Assembly: GCF_002875945.1 (NCBI RefSeq)
Contig: NZ_MCZK01000110.1
Location: forward strand, 1-64,000
Length of the DNA: 64,000 nt
Source of the DNA: Vibrio lentus
Lineage (GTDB): Bacteria > Pseudomonadota > Gammaproteobacteria > Enterobacterales > Vibrionaceae
Reading direction: 5' to 3'
Positions 50,452-64,000 of the stretch are shown piece after piece (the stretch's first letter is position 1; every line of letters begins with the position of its first letter). A program made the translations under genes and the position numbers. Below the pieces are notes generated by a model. That model saw only the letters and a list, made by a program, of their open reading frames with translations. It ran no database searches and had not been told where the DNA came from.

Positions 50452-50847
50452 TTACTTCTTGTTCATCCGGATATGGCGATTAGACACGTTCGGCAGTGGC
50501 TTCTCTGGCACTTTCCGTTTCTCATGAATCAAATGTCGAATAGCTAAAATCGGATGCTTGAGTAGCATTCTTGGCCCGGCATAGCGCATCACCAAACGCA
50601 TCTGCTCTTTCGGGTCAGGCTTATAGCAATGAATCGGGCACTTGTTACAGGTCGGCTTTGCTTCGCCATAAGGGCATCGATCGAGTCGTGTCTCTGCATA
50701 ACGCAACAGTTGCTCACACTCTTCACATAACGCGTTATTCTGACGAACCGTACCGTGGTGATCTTTGCAGTAGATGTGCACCATCGCAATAACGGTTTTG
50801 TACTCTGTCTCGAGTTCGCCTTGTAGAATGTTGTTATGTTGGAACAT
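50452..50847 (-). CDS. ygbA: YgbA/nitrous-oxide-stimulated-promoter family protein
   Basis: This 131-residue cytoplasmic protein has the PF11756 pattern: YCKDHHG, CEECEQLLRYAETRLDRCPYG and KPTCNKCPIHCY, then PRMLLKHPILAIRHL. The seven or so cysteines suggest a metal or iron-sulfur site. In E. coli ygbA belongs to the NsrR nitric-oxide regulon. No NsrR site was recognised here, because the gene is second in an operon with the upstream GNAT (2-bp gap). Confidence 0.88.
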   Translation of the reverse strand: MFQHNNILQGELETEYKTVIAMVHIYCKDHHGTVRQNNALCEECEQLLRYAETRLDRCPYGEAKPTCNKCPIHCYKPDPKEQMRLVMRYAGPRMLLKHPILAIRHLIHEKRKVPEKPLPNVSNRHIRMNKK

Positions 50848-50849
50848 GA

Positions 50850-51365
50850 TTAATTACCTAATGAGAAACCGTACAGGTTGAGATTGACGCTTTCATTGAT
50901 CGCCTCTTCAACTCGTTCGAACACAAAACCTAACTTAGTCAGTAGTGCGATACTTCGAATGTTATCAGAGGTTGTGATGGCAACTAAATGATCGATATCA
51001 GCATTATGCTTAGCTTGTTCAATTATAGCTTGTGCCGCTTCCAATGCAAAACCTTGCCCATAGGCTTCAGGGACAAAACCATATCCAATATCATGGGACT
51101 CTAGGGTATCTCTTTTAATTAATCCGCAGACACCAATTGGCGTTGAGGAATCTTTAATTTCAACCATTAATAAGCACACACCCTTCTCTTGGTGCATTTT
51201 GAGAATGTTGTTTTCGATGTATTCAACAGCCTTGTCTACGTCGCTGATTTCCTTGTCTCCGATGTAACGCAGAAAATCTTCTGAGCTATATAATCGTTGG
51301 ATAAACGCCGCATCTTGAGGTGTGATCATTCTTAATCGTAAACGTGCGGTCTCGACTGCCTGCAT
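50850..51365 (-). CDS. GNAT-family acetyltransferase (RimJ/RimL-like)
   Basis: ATG 51365 (MQAVETARLRLRMITPQD) is used because AAGGAAAA lies upstream; further in-frame starts have no site. The 171-residue product has the RimJ/RimL-like start and the acetyl-CoA motif GYGFVPEAYGQGFALEAA. It probably acetylates an alpha-amino group of a protein or a small amine. It is cotranscribed with the YgbA-type gene. Confidence 0.85.
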   Translation of the reverse strand: MQAVETARLRLRMITPQDAAFIQRLYSSEDFLRYIGDKEISDVDKAVEYIENNILKMHQEKGVCLLMVEIKDSSTPIGVCGLIKRDTLESHDIGYGFVPEAYGQGFALEAAQAIIEQAKHNADIDHLVAITTSDNIRSIALLTKLGFVFERVEEAINESVNLNLYGFSLGN

Positions 51366-51462
51366 AGTGATATTTTCCTTGCTGAATACCATGTAAATAT
51401 TGAGTTCTAGATCTAAAATGATTATCCTCCACCGCATAAACTAAATACAAGGCTATGCAGCA

Positions 51463-51819: not shown

Positions 51820-52743
51820 TTAACCTTTGAAGGGTTCAACTTCCCAACGTGCGAACGGCGCTTTTGCGTTAATCCCTGCTCTTCCCCAGCGGTCTACCGA
51901 GTCAACTACCAGAATTCGCTCATTAGGCACCAGTGACTTAATCAAAGTCGTCGGCTTTTTCGCTGTGACTAACCAAAGAGCATCATCTTCCGAAAACATC
52001 GCTTTGAGCTTCGCTTTATCTTGCTCTGTCCATTCAAGCTCTGCTTTGAACATACGTTCTTCAACAAACAGTTGGCTACCCGAAGCGAAATCTTCCAAGC
52101 TTTCTGAAAGCAACAATACTGAATCTACGTCGTTATCCAGTAATACCGCTTGTTGCTTGTTAATCAGTTCACGAACATCAAGCATTACACGCTGTAAGTT
52201 GCTATCAATCGTGTTTGCTTGCGCTGGCCACAATAACTTAAAGTCGTCAGCCACAATTGCCGCCATACGCGTTAAGTTTGTCGGGTTTAACCACGCGTAC
52301 TTAGACACATCACCACTCGATAACGTCAACGCTGCAACACCTTGTGCGCGTGGAGTAATCGCTTGAGCCGCATCTACTTCCACCAAACGGATGTTGCCCT
52401 GCCTTGCGTAGACAAAGGTAGGGTCAGCTTGCCAGATCGATGACAGCGTTAATGCAACGGTCGCCTTTTCTCCGGACTTAAGCACCTTGCTTGCGCCCTT
52501 AGTGCCAAACCAGTTAGGCAGACGATCAATACCGTAGCGTTTTGGTGGTAGGTATTCGGTCGTAATGTCGGTACCTTTGGTTAGCTCTGTCGCTAACGCG
52601 TAAGTCACAGGCGTACTGGTGAGGATATCCTCTGCATTTACGTTGAAAGATACCATTGAGGCACCTAACAACATACTGCCGACTGCACTCACTTGAGCCG
52701 TTGCTTTGAGTGAACTTGAAATACGATTCATTAAAGAAGTCAT
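51820..52743 (-). CDS. Degenerate ZnuA-like secreted protein, end of the metal operon
   Basis: The start is ATG 52743, two bases after the permease stop; an upstream extension lies inside the permease gene. The 307-residue product has a signal peptide (about 1-37, SFNVNA-ED). Its layout recalls cluster-9 metal-binding proteins, with VTYALATELTKGTDI and KYAWLNPTNLTRMA where ZnuA has H-x-WLDP-N. The metal-ligand histidines are not present at these places, so it may not bind metal in the usual way. It may be a second periplasmic component or a chaperone. Family assignment is tentative. Confidence 0.65.
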   Translation of the reverse strand: MTSLMNRISSSLKATAQVSAVGSMLLGASMVSFNVNAEDILTSTPVTYALATELTKGTDITTEYLPPKRYGIDRLPNWFGTKGASKVLKSGEKATVALTLSSIWQADPTFVYARQGNIRLVEVDAAQAITPRAQGVAALTLSSGDVSKYAWLNPTNLTRMAAIVADDFKLLWPAQANTIDSNLQRVMLDVRELINKQQAVLLDNDVDSVLLLSESLEDFASGSQLFVEERMFKAELEWTEQDKAKLKAMFSEDDALWLVTAKKPTTLIKSLVPNERILVVDSVDRWGRAGINAKAPFARWEVEPFKG

Positions 52744-52745
52744 GA

Positions 52746-53621
52746 TTATGCCTTTCTTACAATTCGGTATAGCGTTGCCGCTAGGAAAAACGTTGCAGAA
52801 ACGATGATGATTGAAGCCCCTGATGGCACCGGCAGTTTTAGCTCCATAGGCAATACTGTTCCGACCAAACACGCGATGGTTGCAAGTAACGCAGACAGCA
52901 AAACAAAGCTGCCCATGCGTTTAGTCAGCAATCGAGCCGTAGCACCTGGGATCAGCAATAACGCGCCAACCAGAACCGCACCCACTATTTTCACCGCTGC
53001 AATCGTCACTAAGGTGATCATCATGACAAACAAGTAATCGTAGAAGCTGGTGTTATAGCCACGTACCTTGGCGATATCAGGACTAATACACGTCAAAAGA
53101 ATGCGGTTGAATGTCGGTATCAAGAGTAAAATGATGATCCCGCAACTGCCTGCGAGAATCGCTAAATCTTGGTCTGTTACGGTAAGAATCGAACCAAACA
53201 ACACGTTCTCAAGCATGTGGATATTGATCTTACGTGCCACGTACATCAACAATGCCGCGCCAACCGCTAACGCAAGCGCAAGGAAAACGCCGACTAGGGT
53301 GTCGTATGGCACGTTGGTTCTGTTTCTTACGAAGTGAAGAAGCAAAGCGAAGATCATACAGAAGCTAAACAAGCCAATAATTGGGTTTTCTGGTGGCTCA
53401 CCGAGCAGAACACCGATAGCGATACCGGTTAAAGCCGCGTGGCCGACGGCTTCAGAGAAGAAAGCCAGACGCTTAGCAATCACCAAAGTACCAAGACCAC
53501 CTAACAGAGGGCCAAGCAATAACGCTGCAACCAAAGCATTGACCATAAAGGCATACATAAAGCTGTCTGATAACCAACCTGCTTCCACGCCGCTAATGGC
53601 AAATTGTCGTAACCAATCCAT
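52746..53621 (-). CDS. znuB-like: Zinc/manganese-type ABC permease
   Basis: This 291-residue inner-membrane protein of the ABC-3 family has eight to nine helices, with GLGTLVIAKRLAFFSEAVGHAAL near residue 45 and KIVGAVLVGALLLIPGATA later. It imports Zn2+, Mn2+ or Fe2+; sequence alone does not settle which. Its start overlaps the ATPase stop by one base (TAATG). Confidence 0.9.
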   Translation of the reverse strand: MDWLRQFAISGVEAGWLSDSFMYAFMVNALVAALLLGPLLGGLGTLVIAKRLAFFSEAVGHAALTGIAIGVLLGEPPENPIIGLFSFCMIFALLLHFVRNRTNVPYDTLVGVFLALALAVGAALLMYVARKINIHMLENVLFGSILTVTDQDLAILAGSCGIIILLLIPTFNRILLTCISPDIAKVRGYNTSFYDYLFVMMITLVTIAAVKIVGAVLVGALLLIPGATARLLTKRMGSFVLLSALLATIACLVGTVLPMELKLPVPSGASIIIVSATFFLAATLYRIVRKA

Positions 53622-54355
53622 TACGCAACCTCCTTCGATTTAGCGATGGCTGCACCACTGCTGTAATGCTGGAACAAGCTTTCAATTTTACTTGGGTGCA
53701 ACACTTGTTTATGTGGACCGCTATCAACCAAGAATCGATTCACAACATGTACATTCGCTTCAAGGCGACGCACTGCGGTTACATCATGGTGAACGGCAAG
53801 AATCGTACGGCCTTCATTAACGCATTCACGAATCAGCGATTCAAGATAACGAACGCCCTGCTCGTCCATACCTGTTGTCGGTTCGTCCAACACCAGTAAG
53901 CTTGGGTGATCCAATAAGGCTTGAGCAAACAACACACGTTGTTGTTCTCCGCCCGATAGCTGCCCCATACGGCGGTCGCTACGAGTCGCCATGCCCACGC
54001 GATCTAACTGTGCGAGTGCAAGATCCAATTGCTTAGATTTGCGACGCCAAAACAATGGGATTCGCGTTTGATTAAGCAGTACGAAGTCCATTACCGTCAA
54101 AGGTAAGCTCGACTCAAAAGTCGCTTTTTGAGGAACGTAACCAATGCTTGGCTTTTCTGGCCAATGAATATTGATTTGCCCAGAGAAAGGCGTCAAACCA
54201 AGCACAGAGCGCAGCAAAGATGTTTTGCCTCCACCGTTTGGTCCCATGATCACATGACACTCACCCGCATTAAGTTCTAGTGAAATATCATCAAGGATTA
54301 CATTGTTGTCGTATTGCAGACCAAGTTGATTGATTGAAATTGATGGACCTAGCAT
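53621..54355 (-). CDS. znuC-like: Metal ABC transporter ATPase
   Basis: This 244-residue ATPase has Walker A GPNGGGKTS, Q-loop GYVPQKA, signature LSGGEQQRV, Walker B LLVLDEPTTG and the switch His in LAVHHDV. It pairs with the overlapping permease gene and the binding-protein gene upstream (both TAATG overlaps). It is the cluster-9 metal type (ZnuC/MntB-like). Confidence 0.92.
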   Translation of the reverse strand: MLGPSISINQLGLQYDNNVILDDISLELNAGECHVIMGPNGGGKTSLLRSVLGLTPFSGQINIHWPEKPSIGYVPQKATFESSLPLTVMDFVLLNQTRIPLFWRRKSKQLDLALAQLDRVGMATRSDRRMGQLSGGEQQRVLFAQALLDHPSLLVLDEPTTGMDEQGVRYLESLIRECVNEGRTILAVHHDVTAVRRLEANVHVVNRFLVDSGPHKQVLHPSKIESLFQHYSSGAAIAKSKEVA

Positions 54356-55290
54356 TATGCGTTCCCGCTTTTAGCTTGGTTAGCTGCAGCAAACTTCATT
54401 GCTTCGATTAACGTTTCTAGGTTCTTCTTCATTTCAACTGCGACTTTGTCGTCTTCATATTCACCGTGCGTCATGTGAGAGAAACGGTAAAGCTGAACGC
54501 CCGTTTCCGCTTCAATGGTGTCAACAAAACGGTTTGGCATGTTGAGCTCATAGAACAGAACATCAATACCCGATGCGCGGATCTTTTCGATCGTTTCTTG
54601 CAGTTGGCTAGCACTTGGTTCAACACCGTGTGCAGGCTCAATCACCGCCGCCACATCTACACCAAACTCTTGAAGGATATAGCCGTAAGCATTGTGCGTC
54701 GTCGCTACTTTCATGCCTGATGTATCGAGCTCACCTAATGACAGCATCGCATCACGCTTCATAAAACGAAATTGCTTGGCATATTTACGTGCGTTCTTGC
54801 GATAAAACGTCGCGTTGTCTGGGTCGAGCTTAGAGACTTCACTCGCGATGGTGTAAACCTTTTGAATCGTTGTCGAAAGCCCAACAAAGGTATGCGGGTT
54901 CACAGCACCTTGACCAACAGACTGGCCTAATGCAGGAAGCAAAGGCACTTCTTTATTTGCTTCGATAACCACTAAGTCATCACGTTGCGCGGCTGAAATC
55001 ACTTTAAGCGCGAAGTCATCGTGACCAATACCGTTTACCACGATTGCATCCATCTGGCTCAATCGCTTCAAATCATTCGGTTGTGGCAAGTAGTTATGCG
55101 GATTAAAGCCAGCATCAACCAATGGAAGGATGTTCACTTTGTCACCGACCACCGCTTTTACGTAGCTGTAATAAGGCTGAAGGGTTATGCCAATCGTCAG
55201 CTTGTCGCTATCGATCTTATATTCTTTTGCCAATGCATTGGGTGTCATTAACACCGCCAATAACGACATCAATAGAGTCATAATTCGCAT
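54355..55290 (-). CDS. znuA-like: Metal-binding periplasmic protein, ZnuA/TroA family
   Basis: Start ATG 55290 (MRIMTLLMSLL) has AAGAGA upstream and begins a signal peptide (to ALA-KEY). The 311-residue product has candidate metal ligands His in GFNPHNYLPQP, His in VNPHTFVGL, His in ATTHNAYGY and an acidic ligand near FYELNMPN. It lacks the long His-rich loop of classical ZnuA, so manganese or iron specificity is also possible. It delivers metal to the overlapping ABC genes. Confidence 0.9.
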   Translation of the reverse strand: MRIMTLLMSLLAVLMTPNALAKEYKIDSDKLTIGITLQPYYSYVKAVVGDKVNILPLVDAGFNPHNYLPQPNDLKRLSQMDAIVVNGIGHDDFALKVISAAQRDDLVVIEANKEVPLLPALGQSVGQGAVNPHTFVGLSTTIQKVYTIASEVSKLDPDNATFYRKNARKYAKQFRFMKRDAMLSLGELDTSGMKVATTHNAYGYILQEFGVDVAAVIEPAHGVEPSASQLQETIEKIRASGIDVLFYELNMPNRFVDTIEAETGVQLYRFSHMTHGEYEDDKVAVEMKKNLETLIEAMKFAAANQAKSGNA

Positions 55291-55335
55291 AGTAAATCTC
55301 TTATTATTAGTGAGCATTTTTGTAAGCCGGATTGT

Positions 55336-55932
55336 TTAATGAGAAGAAGCATCATGCTGATCAGCAACTTCTGACTCATTCACCACCACTTTCCAACCTG
55401 CTGATTCCAGTGTGTTTTCATCAAAAGTATCGGGCTGTTTTGCTACACCACCGAAGTAAATCCAGATTTCAGGAGAGACGCTGTTCGCGTTTAAAATAAA
55501 CGAGTCTGCAAAGCCATGTTCGCTTTGTGCAGCATATTCGCTTGATGTAGCGTGTTCACTTGGCGTAGAAAAGTAGTAACCACGCTCGTCCAATAACCAA
55601 GTATGAGAACCTTTGCGCTTCCAACTCTGGTCTTCAACAAAAGGCGCGACCCATTCATCTTTAAGTGACATAACACTTGGCCATTCGCCGTCTGAGTCCA
55701 TACGCAGGTCGCGAATCTCTTCATGCGCCAAACGTAGCTCTGATAGCATCGCCAAGTTTTCTTGTTCAACATCGGTCACCAGAATTTGATGATCAAGTAC
55801 CGCTTTCACGTGGGATTCTGCCTGATGAAATGGAATAGCGACCGTGGCAAAGCTCAGGATGAATACAATGATCAGCCCTACCCATTTGCCTTCTCTGCCA
55901 CCCGTGTCAGCACGTACGCCTTGAATCATCAT
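55336..55932 (-). CDS. DUF6162 membrane-anchored protein
   Basis: This 198-residue protein has one N-terminal membrane helix (about 16-36) and a periplasmic domain with coiled-coil character (EQENLAMLSELRLAHEEIRD) and then WKRKGSHTWLLDERGYYF. DUF6162 proteins occur beside metal ABC transporters; their function is unknown. The start overlaps the upstream gene by 4 bp (ATGA). The middle has a Ser/Glu/His-rich repeat-like stretch (SEHATSSEYAAQSEHG) that could bind metal. Confidence 0.78.
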   Translation of the reverse strand: MMIQGVRADTGGREGKWVGLIIVFILSFATVAIPFHQAESHVKAVLDHQILVTDVEQENLAMLSELRLAHEEIRDLRMDSDGEWPSVMSLKDEWVAPFVEDQSWKRKGSHTWLLDERGYYFSTPSEHATSSEYAAQSEHGFADSFILNANSVSPEIWIYFGGVAKQPDTFDENTLESAGWKVVVNESEVADQHDASSH

Positions 55933-56264
55933 TTCTCACTGATCTCAACAACGTCGACTTCAACAGGAAACTCATGACCTGAGTCGAATACAAGGTAGAA
56001 CTCAGTATCAGGGTTTGGGAATTCAACGATAGAACGCTTATCCGTCATCTCTTTTGCAATCAAGTTGTCTTCGTAATCGTACATCTCAACCGCGTAATCA
56101 ATCGCTTTACTACCATCAGAGTAACCCGCTTCACAGGCCACGGTTTTGCCTTCAAACCAGCAGCTCATCAGTGGAAAGTGTGCTTGCGCAGGTAATGCAG
56201 CGAAACCAAGTCCCAGAGCAAAGCATGGAGTGATTATCGATTTTAGTTTTGTTTTTATTGTCAT
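55929..56264 (-). CDS. Small periplasmic protein of the metal operon
   Basis: ATG 56264 starts a 111-residue product with a signal peptide (about 1-27, AQA-HF). The mature part HFPLMSCWFEGKTVACEAGY has two Cys likely to form a disulfide, and the domain looks like a small Ig-like or carboxypeptidase-regulatory fold (YAVEMYDYEDNLIAKEM). It resembles the neighbouring DUF4198 protein in fold type only. The N-terminal His after cleavage could be a metal ligand. Function unknown. Confidence 0.7.
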   Translation of the reverse strand: MTIKTKLKSIITPCFALGLGFAALPAQAHFPLMSCWFEGKTVACEAGYSDGSKAIDYAVEMYDYEDNLIAKEMTDKRSIVEFPNPDTEFYLVFDSGHEFPVEVDVVEISEK

Positions 56265-56314
56265 GGTTCGTACCCTAGCCACAGTGCAAATTCTCAGAAG
56301 TAAACTGAGCGATA

Positions 56315-56334
56315 AAGGGCTCAAATGAGCCCTT
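56315..56334. terminator. Intercistronic stem-loop inside the metal operon
   Basis: AAGGGCTC and GAGCCCTT pair around AAAT. On the plus strand TTTTTT follows soon after; on the minus strand only CTTTAT follows. In the operon direction it is thus a weak terminator or mRNA stabiliser that could lower expression of the downstream transport genes. Confidence 0.55.
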
Positions 56335-56380
56335 AAGTTTTTTGGTTGCTTATATCAGGGATCGATCCCTATATCGCAGA

Positions 56381-57217
56381 TTATTGAAGCAGTGCTTCGA
56401 ACGTTAAGTGAACGTTCGCGCTTGCTTTGTCAGCCAGTGGGTTGTCAATCAACTCACCTTTGTAGTTCGCTTTCATTACGTAACGACCCGCTACGTCTGG
56501 AGTGAAGGTAATTTCACCGTTCTCATCGCTCACAACGTCAATCTGCTCTTGGTGGTTGCGGTAAAGTGTGCCTTCACGAGTGATTTCCGCTTTCACGTCT
56601 TTCTGGATTTCACCGTTGTAGAAGAACTGGAATGTCACAGGTTCACCTTCAATGATGTCTGAAGGATGCGTTATTGGCTTCATTTCAAGTAGCTTGCCTT
56701 CAATTTTGAAGACTGAATCCGATGGCTTGCCCACTGTGATGTAGCTTTCTGCACGAGTGAAGCTGATTTGTGTTACCACGTCACGCGACTTTTCAGGAAG
56801 AACAGAGTCACGCTCAGCTTTGTTTGCTTTGATCCATTTCACTGTGTCACGACGACCCGCTTTGTATTGCGTGTAGTAAGAAGGCTCATTGTTGATCGCA
56901 ACTTTGTGCGTACCTTCTTCTTCGAAGTAGAAATCAAAGATTGAACGACGTTTGCCGCGAATCACAAAGTTAGGACGCTCGCTGCGACCATCAGGCATGA
57001 TGACATGAGCATTTTCGCTGCCAGCTGGCTTATCAAAAACAAACGTACCGTGAGAAGCAGTCACGTCGAACGTTAGCCAGTCACCACCTTCTTTAGATAC
57101 GGTGAAGTGAGATGGCAAAATCCAACGTGGGTGAGCTTGTGCCGTTGTCGTCGCTGCTAGGCCGAATGCCATCACACCCGCTAGAGCAAGTGCTTTGATT
57201 TTTGTCTGTTTCATCAT
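56381..57217 (-). CDS. DUF4198 periplasmic protein
   Basis: Start ATG 57217 follows ATGGAATTGAAC. The product of about 278 residues has a signal peptide ending AQA-HPRWILPS; the mature N-terminus with His-Pro is typical of DUF4198. A beta-rich Ig-like architecture is seen (VTFQFFYNGEIQKDVKAEIT, ENGEITFTPDVAGRYVM). DUF4198 proteins are associated with metal uptake, mostly nickel or cobalt, and TonB systems, by family context. It lies 100 bp downstream of the DUF2271 gene. Confidence 0.85.
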   Translation of the reverse strand: MMKQTKIKALALAGVMAFGLAATTTAQAHPRWILPSHFTVSKEGGDWLTFDVTASHGTFVFDKPAGSENAHVIMPDGRSERPNFVIRGKRRSIFDFYFEEEGTHKVAINNEPSYYTQYKAGRRDTVKWIKANKAERDSVLPEKSRDVVTQISFTRAESYITVGKPSDSVFKIEGKLLEMKPITHPSDIIEGEPVTFQFFYNGEIQKDVKAEITREGTLYRNHQEQIDVVSDENGEITFTPDVAGRYVMKANYKGELIDNPLADKASANVHLTFEALLQ

Positions 57218-57317
57218 GTTCAATTCCATTATTTATAATTGTTAGCCGTGTCGCTCTATCTGAGCCTACGATGACGACTGTCTACTCTGTTCAGCTTGGT
57301 TTTACTGTTCGCACTTA

Positions 57318-57836
57318 CTATTTAGCGATGTAGTTCAGGGTGATTTCACCCGTCTCTTCTGTTGCTTTTAATTCGTAAGATGCGTTTGAATCTGTAAGTG
57401 ATACTTTTTGGCGAAGGTAGTTACGGCCACCGTGTTCGCGAACCACTTCGATATGAACCGTGTACTCGCCCTGTTCTAGAGTTTGGCCATCATCGCTCTT
57501 ACCATCCCAAACAAAACGGTATTGGCCAGCAGGGCGCGTTGCAGAGGTCACTGCATCAACCAATTCACGATCGTAACGTCCAACCTTTCTCCACCAACTA
57601 CGTAAATCTTTAAGCCATTCATCTTTACCGACCCAAAGCTCAATGGTTTTCACTGACTTTCGTTCGCTGTTCTCTACCCATACCGCCACATAAGGACGCG
57701 CGTACATAGAGGTATCGATCTTTGGAAGCTTAAAGTTCACATCAAGTTTTGCCGTATCAGGGATCGCTTGCGCCATACCTAGGCTTGGCAAAAGAGATAA
57801 AGCAAGAAGCGCCTTGCTCCAGTTCATTTTTTTCAT
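57318..57836 (-). CDS. DUF2271 periplasmic protein
   Basis: ATG 57836 is used (AAAAGG upstream). The 172-residue product has a signal peptide (to GMAQA) and the DUF2271 pattern PYVAVWVENSERKSVKTIEL, LRSWWRKVGRYDRELVDAVT, ATRPAGQYRFVWDGKSDDG and YTVHIEVVREHGGRNY. DUF2271 often occurs with PepSY membrane proteins and flavin-transferring ApbE in extracytoplasmic electron transfer. No ApbE or FMN-binding gene is in the window. Confidence 0.87.
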   Translation of the reverse strand: MKKMNWSKALLALSLLPSLGMAQAIPDTAKLDVNFKLPKIDTSMYARPYVAVWVENSERKSVKTIELWVGKDEWLKDLRSWWRKVGRYDRELVDAVTSATRPAGQYRFVWDGKSDDGQTLEQGEYTVHIEVVREHGGRNYLRQKVSLTDSNASYELKATEETGEITLNYIAK

Positions 57837-57933
57837 GTTTAACAACCTTTTAAATCCGTTTAACCTTTAGTTCGTTCTTCAAGCTGATTCACTAAACTGA
57901 CTCATCAGCCTAATTCATCAAGCTAACGAGGGG

Positions 57934-58563
57934 TTAAGGCACGGCGACAAAATAGATAGCAAGTGAGATTGCAGACCCAAACACCGTCCATTTAATTGAG
58001 GTATTGAGCGTTTTTTTCTTAGGTAACAGTAAGCACACGCCAGTAAGTACAAAGAAGATCATCAGTAGCGCAGTGATATCGATGAACCATTTCCAAGCTT
58101 CACCGCTATTGCGCCCTTTGTGTAAGTCGTTCAAAAGTGCGATAACGCCGTAATTAGTGGTTTCGACTTCCACCATTTCAGACGTCACGTCAACGAATAC
58201 AGAGGCATTGTAGCCTGGTCCTTTGAAGTCCATAGACACTTCGCCGATGAGCAACTCACCGTCTTCAATCTCTGCGTAGATATCTAAACCTGAAGGAACG
58301 CCCGATAGGTTGGCTTCTTCAAACAGAAACGTTTCAAAGGCCGTTTCATCGGCTTTTAATCGCCCGTCTTGGATTGAAAATAAACTTGTAGGAAGCGTTA
58401 ACGTAGACCGTTGGATATTGGGTTGGGTTGATTCAAATAACTCAGGTCGATTAAGGGTGATACCTGTCACTGAGAAGAAAAGAACAACGAACAGAAGCGC
58501 CATTGAAATATAAACATGAAGTCGACGAGCCCATGATTGAACCGCCCTACTTTTTAACGACAT
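57934..58563 (-). CDS. PepSY-associated membrane protein, first gene of the metal operon
   Basis: ATG 58563 starts a 209-residue protein with three to four helices: WARRLHVYISMALLFVVLFF, WKWFIDITALLMIFFVLTGVCLLL and a final helix. His in RRLHVYIS and NDLHKGRN are conserved positions that can hold haem in PepSY-TM reductase-like proteins. It may pass electrons across the membrane, for example to reduce a metal or its chelate. That role is inferred. A Fur-like box lies about 40 bp upstream. Confidence 0.8.
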   Translation of the reverse strand: MSLKSRAVQSWARRLHVYISMALLFVVLFFSVTGITLNRPELFESTQPNIQRSTLTLPTSLFSIQDGRLKADETAFETFLFEEANLSGVPSGLDIYAEIEDGELLIGEVSMDFKGPGYNASVFVDVTSEMVEVETTNYGVIALLNDLHKGRNSGEAWKWFIDITALLMIFFVLTGVCLLLPKKKTLNTSIKWTVFGSAISLAIYFVAVP

Positions 58564-58603
58564 ACAAACCAATACCTATAAATTTTATGGCGACAATTTA
58601 GTT

Positions 58604-58622
58604 GATAATCATTCGTATTGGC
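58604..58622. promoter_or_regulatory. Candidate Fur box upstream of the PepSY/metal operon
   Basis: GATAATCATTCGTATTGGC matches 12 of 19 positions of the consensus GATAATGATAATCATTATC, with a perfect left hexamer. It lies 41-59 bp upstream of the PepSY gene start, suited to repression by Fur. Iron control of the operon is inferred. 58623-58906 holds no gene. Confidence 0.5.
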
Positions 58623-58906
58623 ATTCAATTTACATTGTTTACGTTTGCCGAGCAGCGTAAGGAAATTTACATAACATTACATGGGAAGCAATCGAACTGT
58701 TTGCATATTCTTGCTAACTTGTATTAGAGGCAATTGATAAGTTGTATTTGAGCTAACTGATAACAAGCTCAAGCCTCAAAAAATCTCAATCTCAACATGC
58801 TTAATTGAGATGGGTTTAAGGTAACAGTCGTAGCTTTAAGGATAGAAAGTTGGGACTATTTGATCACTGGTTTGATGATAGCTAATTAAGCTTAAAAGGA
58901 TTTGAA

Positions 58907-59227
58907 ATGCGTATTATTGTTTTGGCTTTTGCTGCGCTAGCAACAGCGTGCAGTAGCCAGATGGCCAGCACGGAAGAACATATCCAGAAGTATATCGGTT
59001 CAGATATAACCGATGTGCAAGAGCGCTATCTAACCGAACGCTCACGCCCTGTTAGTTTTTGGGCATCTCGAAACTATGCCTGGGCTGAAACGAAGAAATC
59101 ATTAGATAATGGTTATACTCTGCATGCCTTTAAGAACCCTTATCGCGACTGCACCATTAACTGGATCGCTGACACCAACGGTGTGATTCAAAGTGCTACG
59201 CCAAGTGGGACGATGTGCGATCCATAA
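58907..59227 (+). CDS. Small lipoprotein, conserved hypothetical
   Basis: This 106-residue protein has a lipoprotein signal with lipobox ATAC (Cys15). The mature domain has IGSDITDVQERYLTERSRP and ends CTINWIADTNGVIQSATPSG; two further Cys may form a disulfide. The layout (helix, then strands) recalls SmpA/OmlA-type small lipoproteins. It is divergent from the PepSY gene and convergent with the TonB operon. Function unknown. Confidence 0.7.
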   Translation: MRIIVLAFAALATACSSQMASTEEHIQKYIGSDITDVQERYLTERSRPVSFWASRNYAWAETKKSLDNGYTLHAFKNPYRDCTINWIADTNGVIQSATPSGTMCDP

Positions 59228-59401: not shown

Positions 59402-60580
59402 TTAGACGTTTCCGTTATCGCTGACTGTTCGCAGCTGAGTCAGATACTTAATCCAACCTTTTGCTTCAGAAGAGGGTTCAATGTTGTTCGCACGCTTAGC
59501 TTGAGCAAGGGCGTTGTCTAAGTTCTTTAACTTATACCATGAACGCACTTTTGCTAATGCAACGTCAGCCTGTTTGTTTTTGTCTTTCACTTTGTCTAAA
59601 ACAACAAGCGCTCGGTCGTAGTAACCTTGCTGAACCAATAGTTGAGCCACATTCCAATGATATTGAGTGTCTTTTTTAGACGCTAACGTCCACACTTCAA
59701 TCGCATTGTCCCACTCTTTCGCTAGCTGCCAGTAGGTTGCTTGCTCTGCTAAAAGTTGAACGTCGCTGCTCGCATCATCTAGCTTGCTAATTTCTTGTGC
59801 TGCGCGTTCTGGAATGCCGCGTTTCACGTAAAGCTGTGCTAACAAGCGTCGATCTGAGTTTTTCAGCTCAACACCTTGTAGATCAGCCAGCGCTAACGTG
59901 TTCAATGCATCGCGGTTACGTTCTAGTCTTAACTGAATACCCACAAGTTGACGCCACCAGTTGTCTTTTTCTGGTTGCAGTTCGATAAGGCTTTCCAGTG
60001 TTGGAATAGATTGCTTCCACTGCTTTAACTGTAGTTGTGCACCCAGTTTTAGCGATAGAGGAGACAACTCTGGTTTTGAATTAAACTTGTCATGATTACC
60101 AATGGCTACTAGTACTTTCGACCAGTTTTCAATTTGGTATTCAGCTTGTGCAATTCGCATCCAAAGCGTGTCTTTCTTTTCTGTTTCTGGCGCAGATTTT
60201 ACTAACTCATAATAGTGCGGAAGCGCATTTTTAAATTGCTGATCGTTTAGTAATAAATCAGCAAGCATGCGTTTCGTTATCCAAGCCTGTTCATCAACCA
60301 GTAAATTACTGTCGACCGCATAAGTAAGCTGCTTAATTGCCGTGTCGGTTTTACCATCTTGCCAGTAAAACACGCCAAGCATGCGCGCTACGTACGCTTT
60401 ATCGTAGCCTTTCGAAAGCTCCAAGCCTGCAAGCACATCAATCGCCTGTTTAACCTGTTCATCTTGAGCAAGCTTATGCGCCTTTTGAACACGAATAGCA
60501 GTATATTGAGTTAGCTCTTTTGCTTGTGTTGTAAGGGGCATTAACAACAAGCCCACTAATATCCATATCTGTTTCATCAT
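59402..60580 (-). CDS. TPR protein of the TonB-TtpC operon
   Basis: This 392-residue secreted protein has a signal peptide (1-20, LTTQA-KEL) and about nine TPR-like helical pairs, such as QAIDVLAGLELSKGYDKAYV, WITKRMLADLLLNDQQFKNA and YYDRALVVLDKVKDK. In vibrios this gene type accompanies ttpC-exbBD-tonB and is needed for the function of some such systems. It may bridge TonB to the periplasmic side of receptors or the cell wall. It overlaps tonB by 4 bp (ATGA) and ends near the strong terminator. Confidence 0.85.
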   Translation of the reverse strand: MMKQIWILVGLLLMPLTTQAKELTQYTAIRVQKAHKLAQDEQVKQAIDVLAGLELSKGYDKAYVARMLGVFYWQDGKTDTAIKQLTYAVDSNLLVDEQAWITKRMLADLLLNDQQFKNALPHYYELVKSAPETEKKDTLWMRIAQAEYQIENWSKVLVAIGNHDKFNSKPELSPLSLKLGAQLQLKQWKQSIPTLESLIELQPEKDNWWRQLVGIQLRLERNRDALNTLALADLQGVELKNSDRRLLAQLYVKRGIPERAAQEISKLDDASSDVQLLAEQATYWQLAKEWDNAIEVWTLASKKDTQYHWNVAQLLVQQGYYDRALVVLDKVKDKNKQADVALAKVRSWYKLKNLDNALAQAKRANNIEPSSEAKGWIKYLTQLRTVSDNGNV

Positions 60581-62178: not shown

Positions 62179-63554
62179 TAAGCAGCAGTCCCAACTGGTG
62201 AAACAACAGCTTTTGATTCAACTGTCTTTTCTGCCTGTTCAGCAACAAGACCAATGCCCTGCTTCTCAAGAATATTGCGAATGTTCTCTGACTGAGTGCT
62301 AAGAATGTTATGTGCTAATAGCAGTGGCATTGCTGCAACCAGGCCAAGTACCGTTGTTACAAGCGCCATCGAAATACCACCAGCCATGACTTTAGGATCG
62401 CCATTACCAAACTGTGTGATCACTTGGAATGTTTCGATCATGCCGGTTACGGTACCCAATAAGCCAAGCATTGGTGCAAGTGCTGCTAGAAGTTTGAGCA
62501 TCGATAAACCTTTCTCTAAGTGAGTCTGTTCATCAACAACCGCTTCTAAAAGACGTAGCTCTAGTGCTTCAACCGTTTGGTTTTGCTCTTTGTTGTACAC
62601 CGCAAGAACACGACCTAGAGGGTTGTCGCCCGCTTGTTCAGGGTTCTTAAGTTGCGCACGAATTTTCTGGCGTGCGATAGCAAGAGAAATACCACGAACC
62701 AATGCGATGATTAAGCCAATAGCCAGCAAACCAAGAATCACTTTACCAACGACACCACCGGCTTGAAGGCGATCAGTTAGGCTTGGTTCCAAAGCTAATT
62801 GCTCTAGCATGAATCCACGTGAGGGATCGACGACAACATTAGATACTTCGCCATCCACAAGTGAAGAAAGCGATGCCAACGTTGGGCCATTTGATGGTTG
62901 CTTCAAGTAAACAATCGCATCTTGATGCTTCGAATCCCACCATACGTAACCTGGTTCTGCAACCAAACCAATAGAACCTAAGCGATAAACTTCAGCACTT
63001 TCAGTGATTCCCTCATCATTAACAAGAGAGACGGTCGATTTACTTATCTCTGAACTCGCTTGGATTTGCTCCATCATGCTTAGCCAAAGGCCTGTTAATT
63101 GTGGCATCGATGGCAATGATTTAGCGTCTACAATGTCATAAACAGTTTCGGTATAAGCAGCACGATCGACATTAGTGACGGTGTCAGATAATTCATGATC
63201 GAGATCTTTCGCATTTTGTCTAACAACACCAAACAACTCACCTAAGCTGCCTGTCTCTAAGCGCAATTTTTCTTCTAAACGAGCCAGTTTATTTTCGTTA
63301 TCACTAAAGGTTTGAGTAAGAACGTCTGTCGCGTTTTGAACCGATGTACGTTTCGCTTCAAGCTGTGCTTTGATCGCTTTGAGTTCTTGTTCTGTCTTTT
63401 TGAAATCCGCTTCACGGACAACATTATGAGAAGCTTGAGTACGATTCTCTGATTTTGCTTTATTAACTAACTGAGCAGTCGTATCAGAAGCAGAGAAAGC
63501 AGAAAATGAAATTGAAGTAATACAAAGCAATGCTGCTAATGGCTTTAAGTTCAT
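62178..63554 (-). CDS. ttpC: TtpC, ExbB-like protein with large periplasmic domain
   Basis: This 458-residue protein has a signal peptide (1-22, SFSAFSA), a periplasmic coiled-coil region (about 45-110), a beta-rich part and then an ExbB-like membrane core (helices near 270-295, 355-385 and 400-425, with LAPMLGLLGTVTGMIETFQV). TtpC is essential for TonB2-type systems in Vibrio anguillarum and others. It is thought to help TonB act in the marine environment. It is coupled to the DUF3450 gene by a 1-bp overlap. Confidence 0.92.
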   Translation of the reverse strand: MNLKPLAALLCITSISFSAFSASDTTAQLVNKAKSENRTQASHNVVREADFKKTEQELKAIKAQLEAKRTSVQNATDVLTQTFSDNENKLARLEEKLRLETGSLGELFGVVRQNAKDLDHELSDTVTNVDRAAYTETVYDIVDAKSLPSMPQLTGLWLSMMEQIQASSEISKSTVSLVNDEGITESAEVYRLGSIGLVAEPGYVWWDSKHQDAIVYLKQPSNGPTLASLSSLVDGEVSNVVVDPSRGFMLEQLALEPSLTDRLQAGGVVGKVILGLLAIGLIIALVRGISLAIARQKIRAQLKNPEQAGDNPLGRVLAVYNKEQNQTVEALELRLLEAVVDEQTHLEKGLSMLKLLAALAPMLGLLGTVTGMIETFQVITQFGNGDPKVMAGGISMALVTTVLGLVAAMPLLLAHNILSTQSENIRNILEKQGIGLVAEQAEKTVESKAVVSPVGTAA

Positions 63555-64000
63555 TACTTAACCTCCGCAACAGTTAAAGAAACAGGTAAAGTAATCAAAC
63601 TAGGTGACGCTTGCTTGTTAGCAATATCGAAGGCTTTATCAAGCTCAGATTTCATCGAAGAATCAAGTTCTTGCCATTGCGAACTGTTTTGGTCCCAAGA
63701 CCAATATTGAGTGCCGTTTAAGTTACGTGCGACCAGTGAAATACGTCCAAGGTGTAAAACATCAACTTCAAGTACTTTGTCTTTACTTATCTCAACACGG
63801 CTAGCGTAAGAACTGAGCTTAATACCGTAATCCACTTCAATTTGATACGCCTCTAGAATTCGGCGATATTTTTCAGCGTCACTGACATCAGCGCGCGTCA
63901 TTGTCGCTCTTAACTTTTCTACGCGATTCAGGCGACTCTGTCTTTTAAATGGAAGATCGTTTTCAATGGTTGCTTGAAGGCCGTCGATCATTTTGTACAT
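63554..64000 (-). CDS. DUF3450 periplasmic protein, partial
   Basis: The last 148 codons are in the window and the gene runs off the right edge. The ATG exactly at 64000 is probably internal, because DUF3450 proteins are about 250 residues with a signal peptide and a long N-terminal coiled coil. The seen part has RRILEAYQIEVDYGIKLSSY and LHLGRISLVARNLNGTQYWS. It heads the TonB/TtpC operon in vibrios. Function unknown; it may scaffold the complex. Confidence 0.85.
   Translation of the reverse strand: MYKMIDGLQATIENDLPFKRQSRLNRVEKLRATMTRADVSDAEKYRRILEAYQIEVDYGIKLSSYASRVEISKDKVLEVDVLHLGRISLVARNLNGTQYWSWDQNSSQWQELDSSMKSELDKAFDIANKQASPSLITLPVSLTVAEVK

What the first reader, a model, noticed from the sequence alone, without database searches (positions are those of the whole stretch)
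51820..58622. Poorly described metal-acquisition system: Fur-like box, PepSY-TM, DUF2271, DUF4198, DUF6162 and two ZnuA-like proteins
A minus-strand set of nine genes joins a possible transmembrane electron carrier (PepSY-TM), a redox-linked periplasmic protein (DUF2271), a metal-uptake-linked DUF4198, two uncharacterised proteins and a cluster-9 ABC transporter, closed by a ZnuA-like protein lacking obvious ligands. The order suggests reduction of a metal or its chelate followed by capture and import. The Fur-like box hints at iron, while the ABC type hints at zinc or manganese.
Basis: partly seen in the sequence, partly recalled or inferred. Interest (0 to 1): 0.78.

Follow-up and report, generated by a model that had tools for sequence, protein, structure and literature searches.

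The report
Fpv-type iron operon with swapped reductase
A Vibrio genome carries nine genes in a row, six of them relatives of the genes with which Pseudomonas takes iron from its siderophore pyoverdine, while three others, predicted to form a flavin-and-heme electron chain, stand in place of the usual reductase; the set would likely strip iron from siderophores between the two membranes and import it as ferrous iron.

Summary
The nine genes are real and ordered as described. The last six (g4-g9) are homologues, in the same order, of fpvJ-K-C-D-E-F of Pseudomonas aeruginosa; DUF6162 is FpvK. The first three (short PepSY_TM, DUF2271, DUF4198) show no detectable relation to FpvG/FpvH; the same trio is described elsewhere as a flavin-linked electron-transfer cluster. 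All nine genes stay contiguous and in order in 52 of 52 loci of this form. In a C-D-E tree this form is one clade (support 0.926) among Fpv loci with FpvGH, suggesting a single module swap. A Fur-like box is conserved in 50 of 52 loci, with no Zur signal. In this genome the cluster follows a TonB2 system and a siderophore receptor, partly beyond the window, with a similar operator. Iron, not zinc or manganese, is the likely metal. Likely path: receptor, periplasmic reduction by heme and covalent flavin, ferrous iron to FpvC, then the ABC importer. No biochemistry exists; flavinylation is unproven (S where G is canonical; no ApbE gene beside it); the cargo siderophore is unknown. New variant of a known kind.

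The parts
57934..58563 (-). g1, short PepSY_TM protein (209 aa), predicted heme-bearing membrane electron carrier
   Evidence: PF16357 198.8 bits, PF03929 47.7 bits; His16 and His148 invariant in 53 of 53; no match to PA7 FpvG
57318..57836 (-). g2, DUF2271 exported protein with flavinylation-like motif VDAVTSAT
   Evidence: PF10029 159.9 bits; D-x-x-[ST]-S-A-[ST] in 53 of 53
56381..57229 (-). g3, DUF4198 exported protein, predicted mature N-terminus His
   Evidence: PF10670 157.7 bits; His33 and His108 53 of 53, His60 52 of 53
55929..56261 (-). g4, FpvJ homologue (110 aa), predicted mature N-terminal His plus Cys34/Cys43
   Evidence: Profile without Pseudomonas rows hits PA7 J at 9.4e-26; A/S-H and two-Cys pattern in 142 of 143; beta-sandwich model pLDDT 85
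55336..55932 (-). g5, FpvK homologue = DUF6162, N-terminal membrane helix, C-terminal His
   Evidence: PF19659 42.9 bits; PA7 counterpart PF19659 152.6 bits; profile 2.2e-26; ends in His in 129 of 143
54355..55317 (-). g6, FpvC homologue, ZnuA-family metal-binding protein
   Evidence: 48.7% identical to PA7 FpvC; six His and Glu257 in 64 of 64
53621..54355 (-). g7, FpvD homologue, ABC ATPase
   Evidence: 43.5% identical to PA7 counterpart
52746..53621 (-). g8, FpvE homologue, ABC-3 family permease
   Evidence: 53.3% identical to PA7 counterpart; PF00950 186.8 bits
51820..52743 (-). g9, FpvF homologue, second binding protein without conserved His
   Evidence: 34.6% identical to PA7 counterpart, profile 1.1e-52; no column with His in half of the 64 rows
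58604..58622 (-). Fur-like operator; wider stretch 58603-58640 is 31/38 identical to the stretch upstream of the receptor
59402..60580 (-). TPR protein (TtpD2-like), last gene of the TonB2-type cluster
   Evidence: PF14559 37.5 bits and other TPR models; gene role from PMC6957404
60577..61197 (-). TonB (TonB2-type)
   Evidence: PF03544 76.1 bits; TIGR01352 67.1 bits
61217..61621 (-). ExbD
   Evidence: PF02472 103.3 bits
61618..62178 (-). ExbB
   Evidence: PF01618 81.4 bits
62178..63554 (-). TtpC-like, long MotA/ExbB-family protein
   Evidence: PF01618 105.6 bits; name by position and size
63554..64000 (-). DUF3450 protein (TtpB2-like), continues past the window end; receptor gene follows at contig 64500-66617
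   Evidence: PF11932 272.3 bits; receptor TIGR01783 306.5 bits, place

Best explanation
The nine genes are an Fpv-type cluster in which fpvJ-K-C-D-E-F homologues are kept and a short PepSY_TM, a DUF2271 and a DUF4198 gene stand in the place of fpvG-fpvH, and it likely reduces ferric siderophore in the periplasm and imports the freed iron as Fe2+. Shown by calls: the homology and order of the six genes, the other three genes in place of fpvGH, the nine-gene conservation, the Fur-like operator shared with the receptor gene, and the neighbouring TonB2 system and receptor. Inferred: a TonB2-energised receptor, most simply the neighbour, brings a ferric siderophore in. The PepSY protein would pass electrons across the inner membrane through a bis-His heme. 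The DUF2271 protein, likely carrying FMN attached by the genome's single distant ApbE, would hand them to the iron, probably while FpvF holds the siderophore. FpvC would take the Fe2+ through its histidines and pass it to the FpvDE importer. DUF4198 and FpvJ, both with a predicted mature N-terminal histidine, and FpvK, with a C-terminal histidine, would act as iron relays or docking parts. Fur would likely switch it on under iron limitation.
For: FpvC: closest solved chains (E 6.5e-91) are identical over the 279 residues compared to P. aeruginosa PA7 FpvC. PA7 order 403 aa - 179 aa - J-K-C-D-E-F; profiles built without Pseudomonas and Azospirillum rows find PA7 J (9.4e-26), K (2.2e-26), C, D, E and F (1.1e-52 to 3.9e-117) but nothing for g1-g3. 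Six FpvC histidines and Glu257 in 64 of 64. JKCDEF in 63 of 63 loci read; g1-g3 in 52; nine genes contiguous in 52 of 52. An FpvH profile finds 10 of the other 11 loci and none of the 52. Single clade in the C-D-E tree. Fur-like box 50 of 52; operator shared with the receptor (31 of 38). TonB2 and receptor upstream. Fpv reduction and import: PMC6954188 (passages). DUF2271 flavinylation and PepSY/DUF2271/DUF4198 clusters: PMC8238504 (passages and section 11). peuA-TonB2 operon Fur-regulated in V. parahaemolyticus: PMC4141801 (abstract and passages).
Against: No activity, expression or metal was measured. The DUF2271 motif has S where the published motif has G in all 53; of 13 DUF2271 loci with an ApbE gene nearby only 1 has S, 11 have G and 1 has Q. 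No ApbE is found in any of the 63 loci and the genome has one, on another contig. 13 of 52 loci of this form show neither the full TonB2 set nor a receptor of this profile in the stretch read (two of these, L058 and L059, have another TonB-dependent receptor), and 25 of 152 genomes without FpvC have the receptor type. PeuA imports ferric enterobactin in V. parahaemolyticus at pH 8, and ferric enterobactin is very hard to reduce (recalled). DUF4198 from Ideonella bound Ni2+ best. The window's Fur-like box alone is not significant, and upstream of F, inside the cluster, 10 of 63 also reach 13 of 19.
Confidence: 0.68

Rival explanations
1. Same pathway, but the DUF2271 protein carries no covalent flavin. 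The PepSY heme protein reduces the ferric siderophore directly, as proposed for FpvG and FoxB, and DUF2271 and DUF4198 are scaffolds or iron chaperones.
For: Motif departs from the published D-x-x-[ST]-G-A-[ST] in 53 of 53; no apbE in the 63 loci; FpvG-type proteins are described as reductases by themselves.
Against: The acceptor Thr/Ser, the Ala and the Asp are kept in 53 of 53; replacement of the motif Gly by Ala in another protein still left about 50% flavinylation; DUF2271 with SSAT lies near ApbE in L205; the PepSY here is half the length of FpvG and may need a partner.
Confidence: 0.27
2. A general periplasmic ferric reductase and Fe2+ importer that serves any ferric chelate reaching the periplasm, including the cell's own predicted NIS siderophore; its place beside the receptor and TonB2 is only shared iron regulation.
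For: 13 of 52 loci of this form show neither the full TonB2 set nor this receptor type in the stretch read; four loci sit among genes that do not look like iron uptake (L065-L067, L102; large ORFs judged by eye); the genome has two IucA/IucC genes.
Against: Co-occurrence of the receptor type with FpvC, 87 of 95 against 25 of 152 genomes (not corrected for relatedness); 33 of 52 loci have TonB2 and receptor on the same strand; shared operator.
Confidence: 0.25
3. A zinc or manganese importer of the cluster-9 type with redox helpers, as the ABC type hinted to the first reader.
For: ZnuA, ABC-3 and ABC_tran Pfam matches; best NCBIfam names are AztABC zinc and MntA/MntC manganese, all below cut-off.
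Against: FpvC-type match far above any Mn or Zn protein; Zur consensus scores equal shuffles, 8.13 against 8.17; two other ZnuA-family proteins in the genome; Fur-like box conserved.
Confidence: 0.05
4. A nickel or cobalt acquisition system, because DUF4198 and the NikL-like protein recall NikM/NikL.
For: NikL match 42.9 bits for g4 and 30.5 for PA7 FpvJ; a DUF4198 protein binds Ni2+ with Kd 18 nM; VPA0159, probably the g3 counterpart in V. parahaemolyticus, is called nickel-linked in print.
Against: NikL cut-off is 100 bits, so not met; the importer is an FpvCDE type; FpvJ acts in iron release in P. aeruginosa.
Confidence: 0.03

Closest known systems
fpvGHJKCDEF pyoverdine-iron release and import system of Pseudomonas aeruginosa (PMC6954188, passages read)
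   Same: J, K, C, D, E and F homologous and in the same order; FpvC histidines kept; second binding protein without conserved His.
   Different: FpvG (403 aa; tandem PepSY domains and 4 TM in print) and FpvH are absent; three other genes stand in their place; pyoverdine genes not looked for; TonB2 and another receptor beside it.
PepSY/DUF2271/DUF4198 flavinylation-associated clusters (PMC8238504, passages and section 11 read)
   Same: Same three families side by side.
   Different: No apbE in the loci read; motif S instead of G; coupled here to an FpvJKCDEF importer, a combination not mentioned in the parts read.
peuA-TonB2 locus of Vibrio parahaemolyticus, VPA0150-VPA0156 (PMC4141801, abstract and passages read)
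   Same: Receptor followed by the six TonB2 genes in one direction; the paper reports a peuA orthologue without peuRS in V. splendidus.
   Different: The paper's operon ends at VPA0156; the parts read do not describe the nine genes that follow. In 9 loci with two-component genes directly before the receptor the receptor is 55-59% (8 loci) or 84% (L062) identical to the own one.
FoxB ferric-siderophore reductase (described)
   Same: PepSY_TM protein with conserved histidines, which bind heme in FoxB.
   Different: FoxB has four TM helices and two PepSY domains; g1 is 209 aa and found no usable match among solved chains by sequence.

Membership tests
Fpv system (fpvGHJKCDEF) | FpvJ-K-C-D-E-F homologues in this order | tested here: met
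   62 of 63 loci in this order, L098 has J after F
Fpv system (fpvGHJKCDEF) | FpvC histidines taken as its metal site | tested here: met
   Six His that are Gly in solved chain 6r6k but His in 6r3z are all kept, 64 of 64; that they bind metal is inferred from that variant
Fpv system (fpvGHJKCDEF) | FpvG reductase of about 400 aa | tested here: not met
   g1 is 209 aa; no hit to PA7 FpvG by profile and hhalign probability 1.0 percent; both share the PepSY_TM Pfam family only
Fpv system (fpvGHJKCDEF) | FpvH | tested here: not met
   No hit of g2 or g3 profiles to PA7 FpvH; FpvH profile finds none of the 52 loci of this form, but 10 of the other 11
Fpv system (fpvGHJKCDEF) | Reduction of ferric siderophore and Fe2+ import | not testable with these tools
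   Needs biochemistry
PepSY/DUF2271/DUF4198 flavinylation cluster | The three families side by side | tested here: met
PepSY/DUF2271/DUF4198 flavinylation cluster | apbE in the cluster (frequent, not constant, in print) | tested here: not met
   No ApbE hit in 63 loci, while the same query finds 13 of 30 control loci; own genome has one ApbE on contig C155
PepSY/DUF2271/DUF4198 flavinylation cluster | D-x-x-[ST]-G-A-[ST] motif in DUF2271 | tested here: inconclusive
   53 of 53 have S in place of G, all else kept; S occurs near ApbE in 1 of 13
ZnuABC/AztABC zinc importers | Curated family cut-offs | tested here: not met
   AztC 129 of 350, AztB 140 of 280, ZnuC 138 of 306 bits
ZnuABC/AztABC zinc importers | Zur box | tested here: not met
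   Mean score equals shuffles over 52 loci; consensus recalled
NikL/NikM nickel ECF systems | NikL model cut-off | tested here: not met
   42.9 of 100 bits
Fur regulon | Conserved Fur-type operator before the first gene | tested here: met
   50 of 52 loci at 13/19 or more against 8.9 percent of shuffles; binding not tested

The most novel reading that the evidence does not exclude
In Vibrionaceae and some relatives the pyoverdine-type iron-release machine has exchanged its reductase for a three-protein heme-to-covalent-flavin wire, and passes the freed Fe2+ along a histidine relay: DUF4198 and FpvJ offering an N-terminal histidine, FpvK a C-terminal one, to the six histidines of FpvC. It would be a reductive siderophore route beside the PeuA/TonB2 locus, in bacteria for which the papers read here describe direct ABC import of siderophores.
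Probability: 0.4. Interest if true: 0.78.

Novelty: new variant of a known kind. Interest (0 to 1): 0.6.

Why it matters
It ties three families of unknown function (DUF2271, DUF4198, DUF6162) and the short PepSY_TM proteins to one likely task, iron release from siderophores, by showing that they stand beside FpvJKCDEF homologues where FpvG and FpvH stand in Pseudomonas. It moves the Fpv pathway out of pyoverdine biology: the J-K-C-D-E-F core travels with at least three reductase arrangements (split FpvG/FpvH, a fused ~590 aa form in four Vibrio loci, and the PepSY/DUF2271/DUF4198 trio). It gives testable roles to FpvJ and FpvK, whose function was unknown in the paper read: an N-terminal and a C-terminal histidine kept in nearly all of 143 sequences. 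It also suggests what follows the well-known peuA-TonB2 operon in Vibrio.

Tried and rejected
Zinc and manganese: rejected as main reading. Nickel: NikL model under cut-off. Caulobacter Zur regulon as a precedent: its znuGHI is an ABC-2 type, and the DUF2271 and DUF4198 genes listed there went down in the zur mutant, so it gives no zinc-uptake link (passages read).

The Pfam DUF6162 model was too narrow as a census tool: 2 of 369 Gammaproteobacteria genomes; the FpvC alignment did better. hhalign of g1 with FpvG, and of g2/g3 with FpvH, gave nothing (thin alignments, so only weak evidence of absence). DUF4198 against solved chains by sequence gave only 22 bits to a chain labelled phosphoribosylglycinamide formyltransferase, not used. 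g1 against solved chains gave only a 12-bit match to a 30-residue peptide.

Locus tags after VPA0156 in print: one paper lists VPA0159 (COG5266) among genes changed at least 5-fold in DMEM; that this is the g3 counterpart is inferred from position. Combination not found in print: searches in the held open-access library only; of the 12 papers listed only PMC6954188 and PMC8891985 were opened, passages only. The motif question was also put to PMC5655446, which has no passage on it.

Full report
What is there. Nine minus-strand genes fill 58563-51820: g1 PepSY_TM_like_2 (209 aa), g2 DUF2271 (172 aa), g3 DUF4198 (282 aa), g4 a 110 aa exported protein, g5 DUF6162 (198 aa), g6 ZnuA family, g7 ABC ATPase, g8 ABC-3 permease, g9 a weak ZnuA relative. 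From g4 on the genes overlap or lie within 18 bases; g1 to g4 are 88-119 bases apart.

Six genes are Fpv. A sequence search of solved structures gave g6 a match of E 6.5e-91 to chain 6r3z and its kin, against 3.7e-27 for the next group, manganese proteins. The matched segment of that chain, used as a query, is 100% identical to a gene of Pseudomonas aeruginosa PA7 (locus L106). There the order is 403 aa - 179 aa - J - K - C - D - E - F, the order of fpvGHJKCDEF in print (PMC6954188, passages read). Names of the PA7 genes are given here by order and size. Profiles built from the window and 56 loci, the Pseudomonas-type and Azospirillum loci left out, find PA7 J (9.4e-26), K (2.2e-26), C (3.9e-117), D (3.3e-73), E (3.2e-109) and F (1.1e-52); profiles of g1-g3 (window and 52 loci) find nothing in that locus. 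DUF6162 is thus FpvK: the PA7 protein scores 152.6 bits for PF19659. Chain 6r6k carries Gly at six positions where 6r3z has His; those six His, and Glu257, are kept in 64 of 64 sequences. g9, like FpvF in the same alignment, has no conserved His.

Distribution. FpvC of this type (E at most 1e-60) is in 95 of 247 Vibrionaceae genomes and 11 of 398 genomes across the phylum. I read 60 of the 107 match rows of these two calls plus three named plasmid-collection records, 63 loci in all. J, K, C, D, E and F are in 63 of 63; g1-g3 in 52. In those 52 all nine genes are contiguous, same strand, same order. The other 11 are: six from one genus taken to be Pseudomonas by size and similarity, one of which (L098) has K-C-D-E-F-J and no PepSY nearby; Azospirillum (382 + 157 aa); and four Vibrio loci with one ~590 aa protein whose first part is PepSY_TM. 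An FpvH profile from 69 Pseudomonas-type proteins finds five of the six, the 157 aa Azospirillum protein (2.3e-37) and the end of all four ~590 aa proteins (2.9e-16 to 2e-12), but none of the 52. So the four look like FpvG-FpvH fusions. Two genomes, G510 and G578, hold both forms. In a tree of joined C, D and E proteins (73 tips, 826 columns, rooted on Azospirillum by choice) the 53 tips with g1-g3, window included, form one clade with support 0.926. The simplest reading is one exchange of the reductase part.

What g1-g3 are. The trio PepSY-like, DUF2271, DUF4198 was described as a common flavinylation-associated cluster, with one DUF2271 protein shown to be flavinylated by its ApbE (PMC8238504, passages and section 11 read). 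Here His16 and His148 of g1 are invariant in 53 of 53, as expected for a bis-His heme; in print a P. aeruginosa PepSY-like protein binds heme by conserved His (PMC10979944, passages). The g2 motif is D-x-x-[ST]-S-A-[ST] in 53 of 53. The published motif has G in the fifth place; changing it to Ala lowered flavinylation to about 50% in another protein (PMC12052999, section 8 read). In a phylum sample (249 genomes, 30 loci returned, own genome among them, 26 readable with the g2 profile) 13 loci have an ApbE within the short stretch held; their letter at that place is G in 11, S in 1 (L205) and Q in 1 (L196). No ApbE is found in the 63 loci; the genome has one, on contig C155, and one DUF2271. 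So flavinylation is likely but open.

Histidine ends. Mature DUF4198 is predicted (signal cut judged by eye) to begin with His in 53 of 53; an Ideonella DUF4198 binds Ni2+ by its N-terminal His and His18 (PMC12537917, section 6 read). FpvJ shows the same Ala/Ser-His start followed by two Cys in 142 of 143 sequences; the last, L098, has the His and both Cys but misses the typed pattern. FpvK has His among its last eight residues in 139 of 143 and ends in His in 129 (63 loci plus 80 Pseudomonas-type loci, many closely related). C, D, E and F have His there in 6, 52 and 1 of 143 and 8 of 141. Roles as iron relays are inference. The FpvJ model is a beta-sandwich (pLDDT 85).

Surroundings. Upstream on the same strand lie TPR, TonB, ExbD, ExbB, TtpC-like and DUF3450 genes, and beyond the window a 705 aa TonB-dependent siderophore receptor at contig 64500-66617. 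This is the layout of peuA-TonB2 in V. parahaemolyticus, a Fur-dependent operon; the paper notes a peuA orthologue without peuRS in V. splendidus (PMC4141801, abstract and passages read). In the window genome two-component genes related to the pair directly before the receptor in 9 other loci lie further off, beyond a carrier gene. 33 of 52 loci of this form have the TonB2 set and the receptor on the same strand, in 26 of them with the TPR gene within 1.5 kb of g1; 13 show neither the full set nor this receptor type in the stretch read, and two of these have another TonB-dependent receptor. Across 247 genomes the receptor type (at least 50% identical) is in 87 of 95 with FpvC and 25 of 152 without (not corrected for relatedness). 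Which siderophore is carried is unknown; the receptor misses every curated cut-off listed except the general siderophore-receptor model. The genome has two IucA/IucC genes, so it probably makes its own siderophore.

Regulation. The Fur-like box (13 of 19) is unremarkable alone (21 of 200 shuffles), while the one before the receptor reaches 15 of 19 (0 of 200). Over 52 loci 50 reach 13 or more against 8.9% of dinucleotide shuffles; controls were 1 of 52 upstream of DUF4198, 0 of 37 upstream of TPR and 10 of 63 upstream of F. Zur strings score as shuffles. A 38-base stretch including the box is 31 of 38 identical to one upstream of the receptor; the best of 200 shuffles was 26.

How it likely works. 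Receptor and TonB2 bring a ferric siderophore into the periplasm; FpvF likely holds it; electrons pass from the membrane through g1 heme to g2 flavin and to the iron; Fe2+ goes to FpvC, helped by DUF4198, FpvJ and FpvK; FpvDE imports it. In P. aeruginosa FpvG, H, J, C and F interact, FpvC binds ferrous iron and FpvF binds pyoverdine; FpvK showed no interaction but is needed for full FpvG activity. Every functional step in Vibrio is inferred.

Verdict. By the rule on membership it is not filed as the Fpv system proper, because FpvG and FpvH were tested and not found; it works like it. It is a new variant of a known kind: an Fpv core with another reductase module.

Noticed in passing
window 55336-55932 and homologues in L046-L185: FpvK/DUF6162 proteins end in histidine in 129 of 143, a feature with no stated role in the papers read.
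   Followed up: partly
G000:C110:64500-66617 and the same site in relatives: Two receptor types, about 61% and over 84% identical to the own one, occupy the same site before TonB2 in relatives with similar FpvC, as if the receptor were exchanged in place.
   Followed up: no
L069-L072: Four Vibrio loci carry a ~590 aa FpvG-FpvH-like fusion before J-K-C-D-E-F; two of these genomes also have the DUF2271 form.
   Followed up: partly
L098:12806-18686: Second copy in a Pseudomonas-like genome (G875): K-C-D-E-F-J followed by a protein that resembles DUF4198 by eye, and no PepSY nearby.
   Followed up: no
L076: DUF4198 gene present twice in the cluster.
   Followed up: no
window 50452-51437: A YgbA_NO family gene and a GNAT acetyltransferase gene lie downstream on the same strand; ORFs of like size follow F in several relatives.
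   Followed up: no
window 58907-59227: Small plus-strand gene for a probable lipoprotein between the nine genes and the TonB2 cluster, no Pfam match.
   Followed up: no
L007:8703-10762: Two-component genes (sensor PF16750, regulator) lie beyond a 434 aa carrier gene upstream of the receptor; in 9 other loci related genes directly precede it. PMC4141801 reports no peuRS orthologue in V. splendidus, so these may be a displaced pair.
   Followed up: partly
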